DNA from: Streptomyces griseiscabiei
GTDB taxonomy: Bacteria > Actinomycetota > Actinomycetes > Streptomycetales > Streptomycetaceae
DNA: 64,000 nucleotides
Direction: 5' to 3'
NCBI RefSeq assembly: GCF_020010925.1
Contig: NZ_JAGJBZ010000002.1
Coordinates: 3,162,001-3,226,000 of the forward strand
In this document: positions 56,140 through 63,874 of the stretch, piece by piece
Numbering within the stretch: the first letter of the stretch is position 1
Layout of the letters: each line of letters opens with the position of its first letter
Notes under the pieces: model-generated
Database searches by the model: none
Told to the model about the DNA's origin: nothing
What the model saw: only the letters and a program-made list of their open reading frames with translations
Translations under genes and position numbers: made by a program

Positions 56140-57183
56140 TCACTCCGGTGCCCGTGCCGTGGACCGGCGCGGTACGAGTGAGGGGGTCAGGGTGACCCTG
56201 GCCGTGGGGCGGTCGCGGTCGTCGATGCGGGCCAGGAGGAGGCGTACGGCGTTGTGGCCCATCTCCTGGCCGGCCTGGTCGACGCTGGTGAGCGAGATCG
56301 GGCCGAACGCGGCGAACGTGGTGTTGTCGTATCCGGCCACCGAGAGGTCACCGGGGACGGACAGACCGGCCTCGGCGACCGCTTCGAGCACACCCATGGC
56401 GACGATGTCCGCCCCGGCGAAGAGCGCCGTGGGCCGGGCGGAGGCGGGCCGGGCCAGCAGTTCCCGTACCGCCTCGTGGCCGCCCTCCTGGGTGTAGCTG
56501 GTGGAGAGCACGTCGATGGACTCCTCCAGGCCGTGCGCCCGCATGGCCTGCCGGTATCCGTCGGCACGGCGGGCGTTGGGCATCTCCGCGAGGCGTGTCG
56601 GGTCGGTCTCGTGGTGCTCGACGTGGGAGATCCGGCGGTGTCCGAGGCCGGCCAGGTGGCGGACCACCAGCGCGGCGCCCTCGATGTCGTCGTCGGCCAC
56701 GGTGTCGTAGACGGGCGAGGAGCCGTGGCGGCCGACGACGACGGTGGGGACCGCGGCGGCGACATGCTCCAGATGGGCGCGGGAGGAGACCGGCGCGACC
56801 AGGACGAGCCCGTCCATGCCGCGGTCGATCATCGCCTCGGTGACCCGGGCCTCCGCCTTCTCCCCGTTGCAGCCGGGGCCGAGGAACACCTGGTAGTCGG
56901 TGTCCTCCAGCGAGTCGGTGATCCCGTCGAGGATCTCGGGGAAGAACGGGTTGCGGATGTCGGGCAGCATCACGCCGATGGTGTAGGTCCGCCCCCGCAG
57001 CGCACGGGCGCCGGCGTGCGGCCGGTAGCCCAACTCGTCGATGGCGCGGCGCACTTTGGCCTGCATCTCGGGGCTCGCCCCGTACGCGTTGCGCAGCACC
57101 TTGGACACGGAGGTGACGGACACCCGGGCGTGTCGCGCGACGTCGACGATGGTGATCCTGCGACGTGATGCGGTCGGCTCCAT
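56140..57183 (-). CDS. LacI-family regulator 3
   Basis: The 347-residue LacI protein has the DNA-binding helix ITIVDVARHARVSVTSVSKVLRN and a full sugar-binding core with NPFFPEILDGITDSLEDTDYQ, AMIDRGMDGLVLVAP and VAGYDNTTFAAFGPISLTSVDQ. It is divergent from a CUT1 importer and GH78 operon and probably represses them in the absence of a rhamnose-type sugar. ATG 57183 has AAGGA seven bases upstream. Palindromes of its type occur at 56094, 57351 and near 60614. Confidence 0.9.
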   Translation of the reverse strand: MEPTASRRRITIVDVARHARVSVTSVSKVLRNAYGASPEMQAKVRRAIDELGYRPHAGARALRGRTYTIGVMLPDIRNPFFPEILDGITDSLEDTDYQVFLGPGCNGEKAEARVTEAMIDRGMDGLVLVAPVSSRAHLEHVAAAVPTVVVGRHGSSPVYDTVADDDIEGAALVVRHLAGLGHRRISHVEHHETDPTRLAEMPNARRADGYRQAMRAHGLEESIDVLSTSYTQEGGHEAVRELLARPASARPTALFAGADIVAMGVLEAVAEAGLSVPGDLSVAGYDNTTFAAFGPISLTSVDQAGQEMGHNAVRLLLARIDDRDRPTARVTLTPSLVPRRSTARAPE

Positions 57184-57350
57184 CCGGTCCTTGCCTCTCG
57201 GGGTGCGTCGGGGCGGCCGAGTCTAAGCCTGATTCCCCAGCTCAGGGGACGGCTCGAAGGCGGAGGGCGGCGGCCCCCGTAATGCCGTCGTCTTGTCTGC
57301 GCAACATCTTGACGTCGCGCGGGAGGCTCCTTAAGGTCTGGCCACACCCC

Positions 57351-57424
57351 TTGGGAAACGTTACCCAAAAATCCATGCCCGGTCTTCGGAGGGCTGATCC
57401 GCCCGATGCGTTGAATCGATTCAA
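57351..57424. promoter_or_regulatory. Two LacI-type operators before the CUT1 operon
   Basis: TTGGGAAACGTTACCCAA (57351-57368) is palindromic except at one pair. TTGAATCGATTCAA (57411-57424) is perfect and sits just before the ribosome site. Both have a CpG centre. Together with the palindrome at 56094 they suggest two LacI-type specificities or one flexible one. Confidence 0.7.
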
Positions 57425-57440
57425 GAGAGGAGGTTCGCCG

Positions 57441-58388
57441 GTGACCGTCATCCCGCACAAGCGCCCGCCGGACGTCGACCGGTCCCCGGGCGCGGAGCCG
57501 GCTCCACGGGGCCGACGCCCCCGAACCGCCCCGCCGTGGTGGTTCGCCCTTCCCGCGATGGCGCTGTTCGCCTTCGTCGTCCTGGTGCCGAGTGCGCGCG
57601 GGGTCTACTACGCCTTCACCGACTGGGACGGGCTGTCTCCCGACTTCTCCTTCGTCGGCCTCGACAACTTCACCGAGATGCTCGGCGACGAGGACGCGAC
57701 CCGGGCCGTCCGCCACACCCTGCTGATCGCCGTGGCCATCACGGTCGTGCAGAACGCGGTGGGACTGCTGCTGGCCCTCGGCGTCAACTCGGCCATCAAG
57801 TCCCGGACCCTGCTCCGGGTGTTCCTCTTCGCCCCGGCCGTGATCACCCCGATCGTCACCGCCTACCTCTGGCGCAACCTCCTCGGTCCGGACGGCGCGG
57901 TCAACAGCCTGCTCGCCGCCGTGGGCCTCGGCGGATGGCGGCAGGACTGGCTCGGCGACCCGGATCTGGCGCTGTGGTCGGTCGTCGGGGTGATCGTCTG
58001 GCAGTTCGCGGGCTATTCCATGGTCATCTTCCTCGCCGGACTCCAGTCGGTGCCCAAGGAGGTCCACGAGGCGGCCTCCATGGACGGGGCCGGTCCGGTG
58101 CGCCGCTTCTGGTCGGTGACCAGGCCGCTCCTGGCCCCGGCCCTCACCATCAACCTGATGCTGTCGATCATCGGCGGGATCAAACTCTTCGACCAGGTCT
58201 GGGCGCTGACGGGCGGCGGACCGGGGCACGCCACCGACACCATCTCGACGCTCATCTACAAGGACGCCTTCACCCTCGGCGAGTTCGGCTACAGCATCGC
58301 GCTCGCCGTCGTCCTCACGATCATCGTGGCGGTCGTCTCGACCGGACAGTTCCTCGCGCTGTCCCGCTACGAGAGGTCCGCGTCATGA
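57441..58388 (+). CDS. Sugar ABC importer permease 1 (CUT1, MalF-like)
   Basis: The 315-residue permease has six membrane segments after a Pro/Arg-rich N-terminal tail; the EAA-type loop is VPKEVHEAASMDGAGPVRRFWSVTRPLL. The GTG at 57441 has AGGAGG eight bases upstream. Its stop overlaps the next gene's ATG (58385-58388). It is the first gene of the operon. No ATPase gene is here; such importers in Streptomyces usually share the MsiK ATPase encoded elsewhere. Confidence 0.92.
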   Translation: MTVIPHKRPPDVDRSPGAEPAPRGRRPRTAPPWWFALPAMALFAFVVLVPSARGVYYAFTDWDGLSPDFSFVGLDNFTEMLGDEDATRAVRHTLLIAVAITVVQNAVGLLLALGVNSAIKSRTLLRVFLFAPAVITPIVTAYLWRNLLGPDGAVNSLLAAVGLGGWRQDWLGDPDLALWSVVGVIVWQFAGYSMVIFLAGLQSVPKEVHEAASMDGAGPVRRFWSVTRPLLAPALTINLMLSIIGGIKLFDQVWALTGGGPGHATDTISTLIYKDAFTLGEFGYSIALAVVLTIIVAVVSTGQFLALSRYERSAS

Positions 58389-59206
58389 ACCGCTACCGCC
58401 GCCGCACCTTCGCCCTGGAACTGGCGATGATCGCGGCCGCCCTGTTCGTCGCCTTCCCGGTGTACGTCCTGGTCAATCTGGCGGTGCGGCCCTCCTCGGA
58501 CACCTCCTCGCCGATCAGCCCGACCGGTTCACCGACCCTGGACAACTTCTCCCAGGCCTGGCAACAGGGGGCGCTGGGCGGGGCGTTGGCCAACAGCCTG
58601 CTGGTGACGGTGTGCAGTGTCGCCGTCGTCCTCGCGGTGTCCGCGCTCGCGGCGTACCCGCTGGCCCGCGCCACGGCCCGCTGGTCCCGGGGGACGTATC
58701 TGACCTTCCTGCTCGGCCTCGCCCTCCCCTTCCAGCTCGCGTCCCTCCCGCTGTACCAGACCCTGCGCGACCTGGGACTGCTCGGCTCCCCCTGGGCGCT
58801 GGTCCTCTTCTACTCGGGGCTGCAGGTGCCGTTCACCGTCTTCCTCTACGTCGGGTTCCTGCGCGCTCTGCCGCGTGACTTCGAGGACGCCGCGCTGATC
58901 GACGGCTGCACCCCGCTGCAGGGCTTCCGGTTGGTGGTCCTGCCCATGCTCAAGCCGATCACCGTGACCGCGCTGGTGCTCAACACGGTCGCGGTCTGGA
59001 ACGACTTCTTCACCCCGCTGCTGTACCTCAGCGGCAGCGACCGGCAGACCCTGCCGGTGGCGATCTCCGGTTTCGTCGGTCAGTACGTCACCGACTGGAA
59101 CCTCATCTTCGCGGCGCTGGTGATCAGCGTCCTACCCGTCCTGCTCGTCTACCTCCTGCTGCAGCGCAGCATCATCAACGGCTTCGCGGGCGGGCTGCGG
59201 GGATGA
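58385..59206 (+). CDS. Sugar ABC importer permease 2 (CUT1, MalG-like)
   Basis: The 273-residue membrane protein has six segments and the EAA loop ALPRDFEDAALIDGCTPLQGFR, and ends with LLQRSIINGFAGGLRG, a typical MalG-family end. It pairs with the upstream permease through a four-base overlap and forms the translocation pore for the sugar. The next gene is the binding protein 55 bases away. Confidence 0.92.
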   Translation: MNRYRRRTFALELAMIAAALFVAFPVYVLVNLAVRPSSDTSSPISPTGSPTLDNFSQAWQQGALGGALANSLLVTVCSVAVVLAVSALAAYPLARATARWSRGTYLTFLLGLALPFQLASLPLYQTLRDLGLLGSPWALVLFYSGLQVPFTVFLYVGFLRALPRDFEDAALIDGCTPLQGFRLVVLPMLKPITVTALVLNTVAVWNDFFTPLLYLSGSDRQTLPVAISGFVGQYVTDWNLIFAALVISVLPVLLVYLLLQRSIINGFAGGLRG

Positions 59207-59261
59207 CCCCGACTCCCGGCCGACCCTCACGCACGGCGGCACTCTCCCCGAGGGGGGCATC

Positions 59262-60554
59262 ATGAAGGCACGTTCACTTCCGATGAGGAACCGCGCACTG
59301 CCGGTCCTGATCGCGGCGGTCACATCCATGTCCGTGCTCGCCGCGTGCAGCGGCGGCACCAAGGCGGGCTCCGAAGGCGGTTCGGGGGGCTCGAAGACGC
59401 TGACGCTCGCGTCCATCGACCAGGGTTCGGTCGAAGACGTCGTCAAGGCGTTCGAGAAGGCCAACCCGGGCGTCAAGGTCCGGTACACGACCAGCGGCGC
59501 CGACCAGTACCAGCAGCAGATCCGCACCCAGCTGTCCTCCGGCACCGCGCCCGACGTGATGTCGGTCTGGCCCGGCAACGGCAACCCGGGCGCCACCTTC
59601 GTCCTGGCGAAGCCGGGCTATCTGCGGGACCTGTCGGACCGGCCGTGGGCCGCCGAACTGCCGGACGCCATGAAGTCGGTCGCCCAGTACGAGGGCAGGA
59701 CGTACAACGCGGTGTTCGGACAGAACGGCATCGGCGCGGTCTACAACGACTAGGCCATGGAGAAGGCGGGGCTCACCCCGCCCGAGACCTGGAAGGACCT
59801 GCTGGCCTTCTGCAAGGCCGCGAAGGCGAAGGGGACCCCGGCCTTCGCGCTCGGCAACCAGGACAACTGGGTGACCCAGCTCGTGCTGTACGCGCTGGTC
59901 GCCACGACCGTCTACGGCGAGGACCGGGACTTCGACAAGAAGCTGCAGGCCGGCGAGACCTCCTTCGCGAAGTCTCCCTGGGCCGCCGCCGTCGACAAGT
60001 ACATGACCATGGAGAAGACGGGCTGCTTCCAGAAGAACCCCCTGGGCACCAACTACGAGGCCAGCCAGCAGCTCGCCGCCACCGGCAAGACCCTCGGCAT
60101 CGTCCAGGGCAACTGGGTGATCGCCCTGCTCAAGCAGAAGAACCCGAAGGGCACGTTCACGCTCAAGGCGCTGCCCGCCACCGACGACCCGGCCCGGACC
60201 CTCATTCCGGCGGCGGCCGGCGCCGGGTACGGCGTCAACGCCAAGGCGAAGAACGAGGAACTGGCCCTGAAGTTCGTGGACTTCGTGATGTCGCCCAAGG
60301 GCATGACCACGTTCGTGGAGAAGCAGGGCAGTCTGCCCACCCTGCCGGACACGGGCTACAGGACCGATCCGTCGCTGGCCGAACTCACCGAGTTCATCGA
60401 GTCGGACCGCACCGTGCCGTTCATGGACCAGCTCTGGCCCAACCCCAAGGTCCAGCAGACCATGCTCAGCGGCCTCCAGGAGATCTTCAGCGGCCAGTCC
60501 ACCCCCGAGAAGCTCCTCGACGAGATGGACGCCGACTACACGTCCGGGAACTGA
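59262..60554 (+). pseudogene. Sugar-binding lipoprotein gene interrupted by an in-frame TAG
   Basis: The frame that starts at ATG 59262 (GAGGGGGGC before it) is a family 1 sugar-binding protein: lipoprotein signal ending LAAC, then SIDQGSVEDVVKAFEKANPGVKV, GTAPDVMSVWPGNGNPGA. It meets TAG at 59751-59753 (codon 164) after VYND. Exactly in the same frame the gene continues MEKAGLTPPETWKDLLAFCKAAK and ends normally at 60554, giving 430 codons in all if the TAG were a sense codon. The ATG at 59757 comes four bases after the TAG. A single base change (likely from AAG, GAG or CAG) explains it; sequencing error or amber readthrough are alternatives. Confidence 0.85.
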
Positions 60555-60724: not shown

Positions 60725-63700
60725 ATGCCAGACGTCCCCGATGAGCCGTTGAGCCGGAGGAAGGTGGTCGGCACCATGGCCGTCTCGGCGGCGGGACTGG
60801 CCGCGCCCGTCGTCCCCGGGCTGCCCCTGACGGCGGCAGCCCACGCCGCCGAGCGGGACGGCGGACAGGGGGCCCGGGTGACGGGCCTGGCGGTCGACGG
60901 CCGTGAGGACGGCCCGCTCGGTGTCGACGACCCCGCCCCACGGCTGAGCTGGCGGGTGGCGGGAGCCGGGGCCGGCTGGACCCAGGCCGCCTACCGGATC
61001 CGCGCGGCGCGCACCGAGGAGGACCTGGACCGGGGCCGCCCGCTGTGGGACAGCGGCAAGGTCCGCTCCCCGGCCCAGACCGACATCCCCTGGCACGGCC
61101 CCGCACCGGCCTCGCGCGACCGTGTGGTGTGGCAGGTGCGGGCCTGGGGCGCGGACGGGCGGGCCATACCGTGGAGCCGTCCCGGCACCTGGGAGACGGG
61201 GCTCCTCAGGCGCACCGACTGGGGCGAGGCCCGCTGGATCGAGTACCCGGGCCGCACCGTCGACCAGCCCCTGCCCCTGTTCGCCCGCGCCTTCCGCGTG
61301 GGCGGACGCGGGGGCAGGGTCGTCAGGGCGAGGCTGTACCTGTCCGGCGTCGGACTGCACGAGGCCCGGCTCAACGGCGAACCCGTCACCGACGAGGTGC
61401 TCGCGCCCGGCAACTCCAACTACCAGCTCTCCCTCGAATACCGGGTGTACGACGTCACCCGGCTGATCCGCTCCGGCGCGAACACCCTCGGCGTCGAACT
61501 GGGCCACGGCACAGCCCTGGTGACCCGCTCCGTCACCGACCCCGCCACCGGCCGCACCGCCCCGTACAGCTGGTGGCAGAGCCAGTTCAAGGGCAGCGGC
61601 AGCCTCGTCGCGCCCGCCGCCCGGGGCGCCACCACCGTCAGGGTGAGCAGTGTCGCGGGCTTCCATGTCGGCGGCACCGTGAACATCGACACCGGCGACG
61701 GCGGCGAGCGTCTGGAATCCCGGACCGTCACCGCGATCGGCACCGCCGGGGCCGACGGCACCGGCATCACCTTCGAGCCCGGTCTCACCGCCGCGCACGA
61801 CGGCAATGCCGCCGTCACCGGCTCCGGCAACTCCCTCGCCGCCACCGACCCGAGCGCGGGCGCCGCCGTCTCCCCGCGGCTGATCGCCCGGCTGGAACTC
61901 ACCCGGGCCGACGGCACGGTCCGGACCGTCGTCAGCGACCGTTCCTGGAGAGCCGCCCTCGGTCCGACCGTCACGGCCAACTGGTACTCCGGCTCCGACC
62001 ACGACGCCCGCCGCGAGCAGCCCGGCTGGACCGCCCCCGGCGCGGACCTCACGGCCACGGCGAAACGCCGCGACGGCACGGCCATGGGCTGGACCGCCGC
62101 CGGAATCGCCCCACCACCCAATCTCACCACCGAACTGGTGTGGCGGGCGGCCGAGCCGCTCAGGGTCGTCGACCGGCTCCGCCCGGTCGAGGTCACCCAG
62201 CCGCAACCCGGCGTCTGGGTCTTCGACTTCGGGCAGAACTTCGCCGGCTGGCCGCTGCTGAAGCTCGACGGCCCGCTGCCCGCCGGGACCACGGTCAAGC
62301 TGCTGCCCGCCGAGTCGCTGAACGCCGACGGCACCGTCCACCAGGCGTCCCTCATGGGCGGCGGCCCCGCCCGCGGCACCGACCTCTTCGCCGCCTACAC
62401 CACGTACGGCGACCAGCGGGGCGAGAGCTGGCACCCGCGGTTCCACTACTTCGGCATGCAGTGGCTCCAGGTGACCGGCCTGCCCGAGGGATACGTACCT
62501 ACCCGGGACACGGTGACCGGCCTCCAGATCCACGCGGACCTGCCCGCCGCCGGGTCCCTGCACACCTCCGACGACCGGATCAACCGCGTCCACCGCATGG
62601 CCCGTTACTCGATCATGAGCAATGTCATGTCGACCTTCACGGACTGCCCCGGCCGGGAGAAGCTCGCCTACCCCGCCGACTACGTCCAGCCCTTCGGCTC
62701 CCTGCACCGCGCCTTCGGCTACGCCGCCTATCTGCGCACCATGCAACGCCACCTGGTCGAGGGCCAGTCCAGGGCCGGCGACGACATCGGCAACGTGGCG
62801 CTCAAGGCCCCCGTGTACGACTGGGGGTACACCGGCCGGTTCGGCGACGAGATCAACTGGGGCAACGGCATCGTCCTGGTGCCCTGGCTGCTGTACGAGA
62901 CATACGGCGACACACAGACGATGAGCCGCGCCTACCCCCGGATGCAGGCCTTCCTGCACTACATCAGGACCCGGAAGGCGGGCACCGGCGCGGACGCCCA
63001 CCTCGTGGACGCGGCCCTCGCCGACTGGATCGCCGGTGAGAACACCTCGGGCCGTATCACCGGTACCTGGGGCTACCACCAGGTCGCCGACCGGATGGCC
63101 CGCATGGCGGCACTCATCGGGCGGGACACCGACGCCGCCGAGTACCGCAACCTCGCGGCCAACATCAAGGACGCGTTCAACGACGCCTTCTACCACACCT
63201 CCCTCGGCCGGTACACCGCCGAGGGCGACCGGGGAACCGCCGGAGCCACCCAGGCCGCGCAGGCGCTCGCGCTCGACGAGGGCCTCGTACCGGACGGCGA
63301 ACGCGCAAGGGTCCTCGACGCGCTGGTGGAACTGGTCCACGCCCACCGCCCGTTCGGGGGCGGTCCGCACTTCAGCGGTGGCACCATCGGCCTCGCCCCC
63401 ATCGTGCGCGCCCTGCACGAGGGCGGCCACGACGACCTCCTGTGGGACGTCCTCCAGGAGGACACCCGCCCCGGATACGGTCACTTCATGGCACCCACCA
63501 CCGCCAACCCCCGGGGTCTGACGACCGTTCCGGAGGACTGGGAGATCGGCAGCTCCAAGAACCACATGATCCTGCTGCAGATCGAGGAGTGGTTCCACGG
63601 CGGTGTCGTCGGCATCCGCCAGGCGCGCGGCAAGGCCGGCTACCGCGAACTGGTCGTCGACCCCCGCCCGGTCGGCGACCTCACCCACGCCGAAGGCGGC

Positions 63701-63874
63701 TACCGCACCCCGTACGGAGTGGTGTCCGCCCGGTGGACCCGCCGCGACGGCAGGTTCCGGCTCGACGTGGAACTCCCGCCCAACACCACGGCGGAGATCC
63801 GGCTGCCCTCCGGCGACGGTGCCCGCCGGGTCGTCGGCTCGGGGCGCCACACGTTCACCTGCCGTGTCGCGTGA
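60725..63874 (+). CDS. Tat-exported alpha-L-rhamnosidase, GH78
   Basis: The 1,049-residue enzyme starts with a Tat signal (SRRKVVGTMAVSAAGLA) and has the GH78 arrangement: beta domains, a carbohydrate-binding insertion near residues 295-395 (AGFHVGGTVNIDTGDGG), a six-hairpin catalytic domain with the motif DCPGREKLAYPADY and a C-terminal beta domain. The motif has Asp at 1, Glu at 6 and Asp at 13, matching the general pattern of characterised GH78 catalytic residues. WEIGSSKNHM is the later catalytic segment. The ATG at 60725 follows GGAGG. It removes rhamnose from polymers or flavonoid glycosides outside the cell, and the importer genes before it would take up the products. Confidence 0.92.
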   Translation: MPDVPDEPLSRRKVVGTMAVSAAGLAAPVVPGLPLTAAAHAAERDGGQGARVTGLAVDGREDGPLGVDDPAPRLSWRVAGAGAGWTQAAYRIRAARTEEDLDRGRPLWDSGKVRSPAQTDIPWHGPAPASRDRVVWQVRAWGADGRAIPWSRPGTWETGLLRRTDWGEARWIEYPGRTVDQPLPLFARAFRVGGRGGRVVRARLYLSGVGLHEARLNGEPVTDEVLAPGNSNYQLSLEYRVYDVTRLIRSGANTLGVELGHGTALVTRSVTDPATGRTAPYSWWQSQFKGSGSLVAPAARGATTVRVSSVAGFHVGGTVNIDTGDGGERLESRTVTAIGTAGADGTGITFEPGLTAAHDGNAAVTGSGNSLAATDPSAGAAVSPRLIARLELTRADGTVRTVVSDRSWRAALGPTVTANWYSGSDHDARREQPGWTAPGADLTATAKRRDGTAMGWTAAGIAPPPNLTTELVWRAAEPLRVVDRLRPVEVTQPQPGVWVFDFGQNFAGWPLLKLDGPLPAGTTVKLLPAESLNADGTVHQASLMGGGPARGTDLFAAYTTYGDQRGESWHPRFHYFGMQWLQVTGLPEGYVPTRDTVTGLQIHADLPAAGSLHTSDDRINRVHRMARYSIMSNVMSTFTDCPGREKLAYPADYVQPFGSLHRAFGYAAYLRTMQRHLVEGQSRAGDDIGNVALKAPVYDWGYTGRFGDEINWGNGIVLVPWLLYETYGDTQTMSRAYPRMQAFLHYIRTRKAGTGADAHLVDAALADWIAGENTSGRITGTWGYHQVADRMARMAALIGRDTDAAEYRNLAANIKDAFNDAFYHTSLGRYTAEGDRGTAGATQAAQALALDEGLVPDGERARVLDALVELVHAHRPFGGGPHFSGGTIGLAPIVRALHEGGHDDLLWDVLQEDTRPGYGHFMAPTTANPRGLTTVPEDWEIGSSKNHMILLQIEEWFHGGVVGIRQARGKAGYRELVVDPRPVGDLTHAEGGYRTPYGVVSARWTRRDGRFRLDVELPPNTTAEIRLPSGDGARRVVGSGRHTFTCRVA

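What the first reader, a model, noticed from the sequence alone, without database searches (positions are those of the whole stretch)
59751..59753. In-frame amber codon in the CUT1 sugar-binding protein gene
TAG at codon 164 splits an otherwise intact 430-codon gene with continuous frame on both sides, and ATG restarts four bases later. The importer would lack a working binding protein unless the codon is read through, translation restarts to make two interacting pieces, or the call is a sequencing error. Since the adjacent rhamnosidase and permeases are intact, the damage looks recent.
Basis: seen in the sequence. Interest (0 to 1): 0.75.

Follow-up and report, generated by a model that had tools for sequence, protein, structure and literature searches.

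The report
Strain-specific broken sugar-binding protein gene
In this genome a single stop codon interrupts an otherwise normal gene for a sugar-uptake protein that is intact in close relatives, which points to an ordinary recent mutation (or one wrong base in the assembly) and not to any special decoding.

Summary
In detail: TAG at 59751-59753 is codon 164 of a 430-codon frame (59262-60554), and the two sides match consecutive parts of the same binding-protein profiles. All 79 distinct orthologue sequences aligned across the site carry a sense codon there. So do three protein clusters 99-100% identical to this one, one of which differs at no other aligned residue. The stop is thus seen only in this assembly. 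The rest of the gene shows no extra decay. Readthrough is unlikely: 0 of 71 tRNA places show a CUA anticodon, RF1 is present, and TAG ends 121 of 543 coding-scored frames in a 904-kb sample. A two-piece protein is unlikely: the second piece lacks a signal peptide (by eye), its ATG has a weaker-than-median ribosome-binding site, and that ATG is an ordinary codon, Met in 38 of 79 relatives. Most likely a very recent nonsense allele that disables one binding protein among 57 family matches; a single-base assembly error is the main rival and cannot be excluded without reads. Ordinary; low interest.

The parts
56140..57183 (-). LacI-family regulator gene, divergent from the operon
   Evidence: Pfam LacI plus Peripla_BP_3; a match of at least 55% identity in 76 of 80 relatives' loci
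57165..58388 (+). ABC permease 1 (longest ORF; the true start is further in, not determined)
   Evidence: BPD_transp_1; no stop inside the match; match of at least 55% in 77 of 80 relatives' loci
58385..59206 (+). ABC permease 2, ATG overlapping the stop of permease 1
   Evidence: BPD_transp_1; no stop inside the match; match of at least 55% in 78 of 80 relatives' loci; start read from the sequence
59262..60554 (+). CUT1-type sugar-binding lipoprotein gene, interrupted (430 codons; relatives start at 59283)
   Evidence: SBP_bac_1 and SBP_bac_8 on both sides; 79 distinct orthologue sequences aligned across the site
59262..59753 (+). N-terminal piece: signal peptide with lipobox-like LAAC, then the start of the binding fold, 163 aa
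   Evidence: signal peptide and lipobox are read by eye
59751..59753 (+). in-frame amber codon (codon 164)
   Evidence: sense codon in 79 of 79 distinct orthologue sequences aligned across the site
59757..60554 (+). remainder of the frame from the next ATG, 265 aa; no signal peptide seen by eye
   Evidence: weak ribosome-binding site at the ATG
60725..63874 (+). GH78-type alpha-L-rhamnosidase, open frame
   Evidence: Five rhamnosidase-related Pfam families; the number GH78 is recalled

Best explanation
A very recent nonsense substitution, private to this strain, in the binding-protein gene of a rhamnosidase-linked CUT1 sugar importer. Translation ends at codon 164 and yields a secreted 163-residue stump that lacks most of the fold; the rest is not made in useful form or is not exported. 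The importer is therefore expected to be non-functional or badly impaired, while permeases, regulator and rhamnosidase remain intact. Shown: the stop, one gene, intact close relatives, lack of further decay, no visible suppressor. Inferred: that the base call is right, and the loss of function.
For: The stop lies between consecutive parts of the same Pfam profiles. Sense codon in 79 of 79 distinct orthologue sequences aligned across the site (45 Gln, 23 Glu, 10 Asp, 1 Gly) and in 10 of 10 aligned full-length proteins, three of them clusters 99-100% identical to this one. One of those (P0004) is identical at every other aligned residue. Among 22 matches in 20 of 199 genomes of the genus (own included; only 8 candidates per genome were scored), a stop occurs only here. 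dN/dS against three relatives is 0.15-0.26 on both sides of the stop, the neighbours' 0.15-0.27. Few other interruptions were seen in 904 kb, so a generally error-ridden assembly is unlikely.
Against: No reads were available. A single wrong base would look the same, and the near-identical intact P0004 could even come from another assembly of the same strain (its source is hidden). The test for an excess of the surrounding CTAG tetramer is mixed and weak: per 10 kb 1.25 in the window, 1.00 in the flanks, 3.47 in overlapping tRNA-rich loci of the same genome, 1.50 in 33 named relatives' loci, 0.34 in 7 short unnamed ones.
Confidence: 0.58

Rival explanations
1. A single-base error in the assembly; the isolate has an intact gene.
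For: The stop is seen only in this assembly and an otherwise identical protein exists. The damage is one codon in a gene with no other sign of decay.
Against: The genome is in 8 contigs at 99.94% completeness. In 904 kb it is the only in-frame stop that I found convincing (by eye), with 2 possible frameshifts in a screen of limited sensitivity.
Confidence: 0.36
2. The TAG is read through (suppressor tRNA or programmed recoding), giving full-length binding protein.
For: Frame open and under normal constraint on both sides.
Against: 0 of 71 tRNA places show a CUA anticodon: 69 typed by ARAGORN, 2 inspected and without CTA anywhere. RF1 present above its cut-off. TAG ends 121 of 543 coding-scored frames. 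TAG stands at the site in 0 of 79 distinct relatives.
Confidence: 0.03
3. Translation restarts at ATG 59757 and two pieces assemble into a working binding protein.
For: ATG one codon behind the stop, so coupled re-initiation is physically possible.
Against: Pairing with the 16S tail is -2.4 kcal/mol, weaker than the median plus-strand ATG in the window (-3.1) and than the gene's own start (-11.3). The ATG is an ordinary residue, Met in 38, Leu in 39 and Val in 2 of 79 distinct relatives. The second piece has no signal peptide by eye, so the pieces would be on opposite sides of the membrane (inference).
Confidence: 0.02

Closest known systems
Strain-specific nonsense pseudogenes (disrupted alleles) of ABC importer binding proteins (known kind, recalled)
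   Same: One stop in an otherwise intact, constrained frame; intact copies in close relatives; neighbours open.
   Different: Nothing seen that differs. Orthologues in L102, L103 and L104 also have frame breaks, of other kinds.
CUT1 sugar-binding proteins (SBP_bac_1/SBP_bac_8) of actinobacterial importers
   Same: Lipoprotein-like N-terminus, two permeases beside it, LacI regulator, glycosidase. Solved relatives such as 4zs9 and 2heu match the intact P0003.
   Different: Interrupted here; substrate not known (rhamnoside suggested only by the neighbouring rhamnosidase).
Recoded or read-through genes (UAG decoding)
   Same: In-frame UAG with coding signal on both sides.
   Different: No cognate tRNA seen, not UAG in relatives, RF1 present.

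Membership tests
Strain-specific nonsense allele (pseudogene) | Premature stop within one gene, both sides matching the same family in order | tested here: met
Strain-specific nonsense allele (pseudogene) | Close relatives have a sense codon at the site | tested here: met
   87 loci given, 85 aligned across the site, 79 distinct, all 79 with a sense codon; L103 and L104 not alignable there because their frames are broken; 10 of 10 aligned proteins
Strain-specific nonsense allele (pseudogene) | The stop is present in the organism's DNA, not only in the assembly | not testable with these tools
   no reads
UAG recoding / suppression | tRNA with CUA anticodon | tested here: not met
   0 of 71 tRNA places; a pattern search of the genome gave 12 hits against 89 for its control; two of the 12 lie in the tRNA-Glu(ttc) gene at C4:189427-189499 and one over a tRNA-Cys(gca) place on the other strand, the other 9 at no tRNA place
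UAG recoding / suppression | UAG conserved at the site in relatives | tested here: not met
   0 of 79 distinct
Split gene with re-initiation | Ribosome-binding site or conserved start for the second piece | tested here: not met
Split gene with re-initiation | Both pieces exported and associated | not testable with these tools
CUT1 sugar-binding protein | SBP_bac_1/8 domain next to two BPD_transp_1 permeases | tested here: met

The most novel reading that the evidence does not exclude
The amber allele is maintained as low-level readthrough or as a secreted N-terminal stump with a sensing role, so that the strain down-tunes uptake of a plant-derived rhamnoside while keeping the enzyme that releases it.
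Probability: 0.02. Interest if true: 0.5.

Novelty: new member of a known kind. Interest (0 to 1): 0.08.

Why it matters
If the stop is real, it predicts that this strain cannot use one sugar that its relatives can, and it warns against reading metabolic ability from the presence of permeases and a glycosidase alone. If it is a base error, it is a curation note. It says nothing new about decoding.

Tried and rejected
Genome-wide amber suppression was rejected. Conserved recoding was rejected. Re-initiation as a designed split gene was rejected. A systematic base-calling artefact visible as an excess of the CTAG tetramer: mixed and weak, no excess in the window or its flanks against named relatives, but a higher rate in overlapping tRNA-rich loci of the same genome and a lower one in 7 short unnamed loci; an isolated error is not excluded either way. 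A stop flagged inside one permease match elsewhere (G000:C4:263613-264224) lies at the second-last codon of the match and I read it as that gene's natural end. Recurrent selective loss of this binding protein: in a look over the table of 80 loci, breaks or partial matches occur in the binding-protein gene of L102, L103, L104 and L105, but also in LacI or GH78 of L060, L088 and L103 and in permease 1 of L057; I saw no selective pattern, and this was not a statistical test. Literature: searches for Streptomyces with stop codon readthrough and amber (8 papers listed), Streptomyces with rhamnose, ABC transporter, solute-binding protein and rhamnosidase, Streptomyces with pseudogenes, nonsense and frameshift and MsiK with sugar-binding. 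By titles and starts of abstracts none is about this gene; I read no paper. Several papers concern another Streptomyces sugar-binding protein, CebE, linked there to plant disease; I did not compare this gene with it.

Corrected on checking: 6 of the 7 unnamed loci repeat named ones, so its 85 rows are 79 distinct sequences and the counts here are the distinct ones; an estimate of how many loci carry the rhamnosidase was replaced by a count.

Full report
What is there. The window lies in contig C2 of a 10.6-Mb genome in 8 contigs, 99.94% complete. A LacI-type regulator (56140-57183, minus) faces an operon of two BPD_transp_1 permeases (to 58388, and 58385-59206), the binding-protein gene (59262-60554) and a rhamnosidase (60725-63874). 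TAG at 59751-59753 is codon 164 of the binding-protein frame, which has no other stop before its natural end. The stretch before it matches SBP_bac_8 positions 2-100 and the stretch behind it 104-264.

More than chance. A codon-usage screen over 904 kb of this genome (window 64 kb, flanks 40 kb, 40 stretches of 20 kb) counted 543 stops that end at least 60 coding-scored codons: TGA 404, TAG 121, TAA 18. It found 13 stops with coding signal in the same frame on both sides. In 12 of these an ATG or GTG follows (within 5 codons in 11, at 13 codons in one) and by eye they are gene ends followed by the next gene; I did not test them by homology. The window's TAG has the highest downstream 60-codon score of the 13, and both its sides match one Pfam family. 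Of 57 SBP_bac_1 matches in the genome it alone has an internal stop. Of 150 permease matches (181 candidates, 150 scored) one is flagged, at the second-last codon of the match, which I read as a natural end.

Relatives. One search found 117 loci that encode a relative and kept the best 80. Of 87 loci given to (these 80 and 7 unnamed ones of the genus), 85 align across the site; 6 of the unnamed ones repeat named ones, leaving 79 distinct sequences. All 79 have a sense codon: 45 Gln, 23 Glu, 10 Asp, 1 Gly. The two that do not align (L103, L104) have frame breaks of their own near the site; L102 has one further down. A protein search gave 933 proteins at E <= 1e-60 among 8000 scored candidates, 120 listed; I aligned the window's protein with 10 of these, and all 10 have a sense residue at the site. 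Three of the ten are clusters at 99-100% identity, one of them (P0004) identical at every other aligned residue. The sources of those three are not shown, so I cannot say whether they are other strains or another assembly of this one. In the genus sample, 20 of 199 genomes (own included) gave 22 matches at E <= 1e-60, from below 40% to 85% identity apart from the own one, and only the own match has a stop (8 candidates per genome were scored).

Recent. Against three relatives (L027, L031, L036) dN/dS is 0.16-0.25 before and 0.15-0.26 behind the stop, and 0.15-0.27 for the four neighbouring genes. There is no second lesion in the gene. The change is therefore young or not real.

Decoding. A family search gave 71 tRNA places. 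ARAGORN typed 69 of them, none with anticodon CTA, TTA or TCA, and the remaining two hold no CTA in any register. A pattern search for CTA-anticodon-like arms gave 12 hits against 89 for its control; two of them lie in a tRNA-Glu(ttc) gene, one lies over a tRNA-Cys(gca) place on the other strand, and the other nine are at none of the 71 places. Release factor 1 is present above its cut-off. With TAG ending 22% of coding-scored frames, general suppression would be harmful (inference).

Restart. The ATG one codon behind the stop pairs with the 16S tail at -2.4 kcal/mol; the median of 479 plus-strand ATGs in the window is -3.1, and the gene's two candidate starts have -11.3 (59262) and -4.0 (59283). 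That position is Met in 38, Leu in 39 and Val in 2 of 79 distinct relatives, so the ATG is an ordinary residue. The second piece has no signal peptide by eye, so it could not reach the first outside the membrane (inference).

Mutation or error. No reads are held. For a real mutation: few other interruptions in 904 kb (one search found 28 frame switches, 26 of them with a start near the junction and 2 without, in a screen of limited sensitivity). The tetramer test is mixed: CTAG per 10 kb is 1.25 in the window, 1.00 in the flanks, 3.47 in 92 kb of overlapping tRNA-rich loci of the same genome, 1.50 in 33 named relatives' loci and 0.34 in 7 short unnamed loci; I give it little weight. For an error: the stop is seen only here and the gene is otherwise perfect. 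I put 0.58 on mutation and 0.36 on error.

Function. Without a binding protein a CUT1 importer is expected not to work (established for the family; recalled). The own genome gave no other match to this protein at E <= 1e-60, but only 8 of 74 candidates were scored, and it has 56 other SBP_bac_1 matches, so a partial stand-in cannot be excluded. That the sugar is a rhamnoside rests only on the neighbouring rhamnosidase. Its best match within the 80 relatives' loci is at least 70% identical in 19, 55-69% in 30, lower in 28 and absent in 3; some loci are cut short by contig ends. The tie between importer and this enzyme is therefore common but not fixed.

Noticed in passing
L103 6240-6400, L104 6420-6500, L102 6840-6960: Orthologues of the same binding-protein gene in three other genomes have frame breaks, two of them close to the place of the window's stop; coincidence, errors or real damage not decided.
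   Followed up: partly
G000:C5:334245-334768 and 350738-350910 (L161, L155): Two small groups of extra tRNA genes (Glu, Arg, Asp and a weak one of 34 bits) on a 355-kb contig, most with lower scores than the main set; perhaps a mobile element.
   Followed up: no
L180 14645 (minus) and L207 11720 (plus): Coding signal changes frame without a start codon near the junction; possible frameshifts in the genome.
   Followed up: no
window 59241-59283: Two candidate starts for the binding protein: ATG 59262 with a strong G-rich site in front, and ATG 59283 where relatives' proteins begin.
   Followed up: partly
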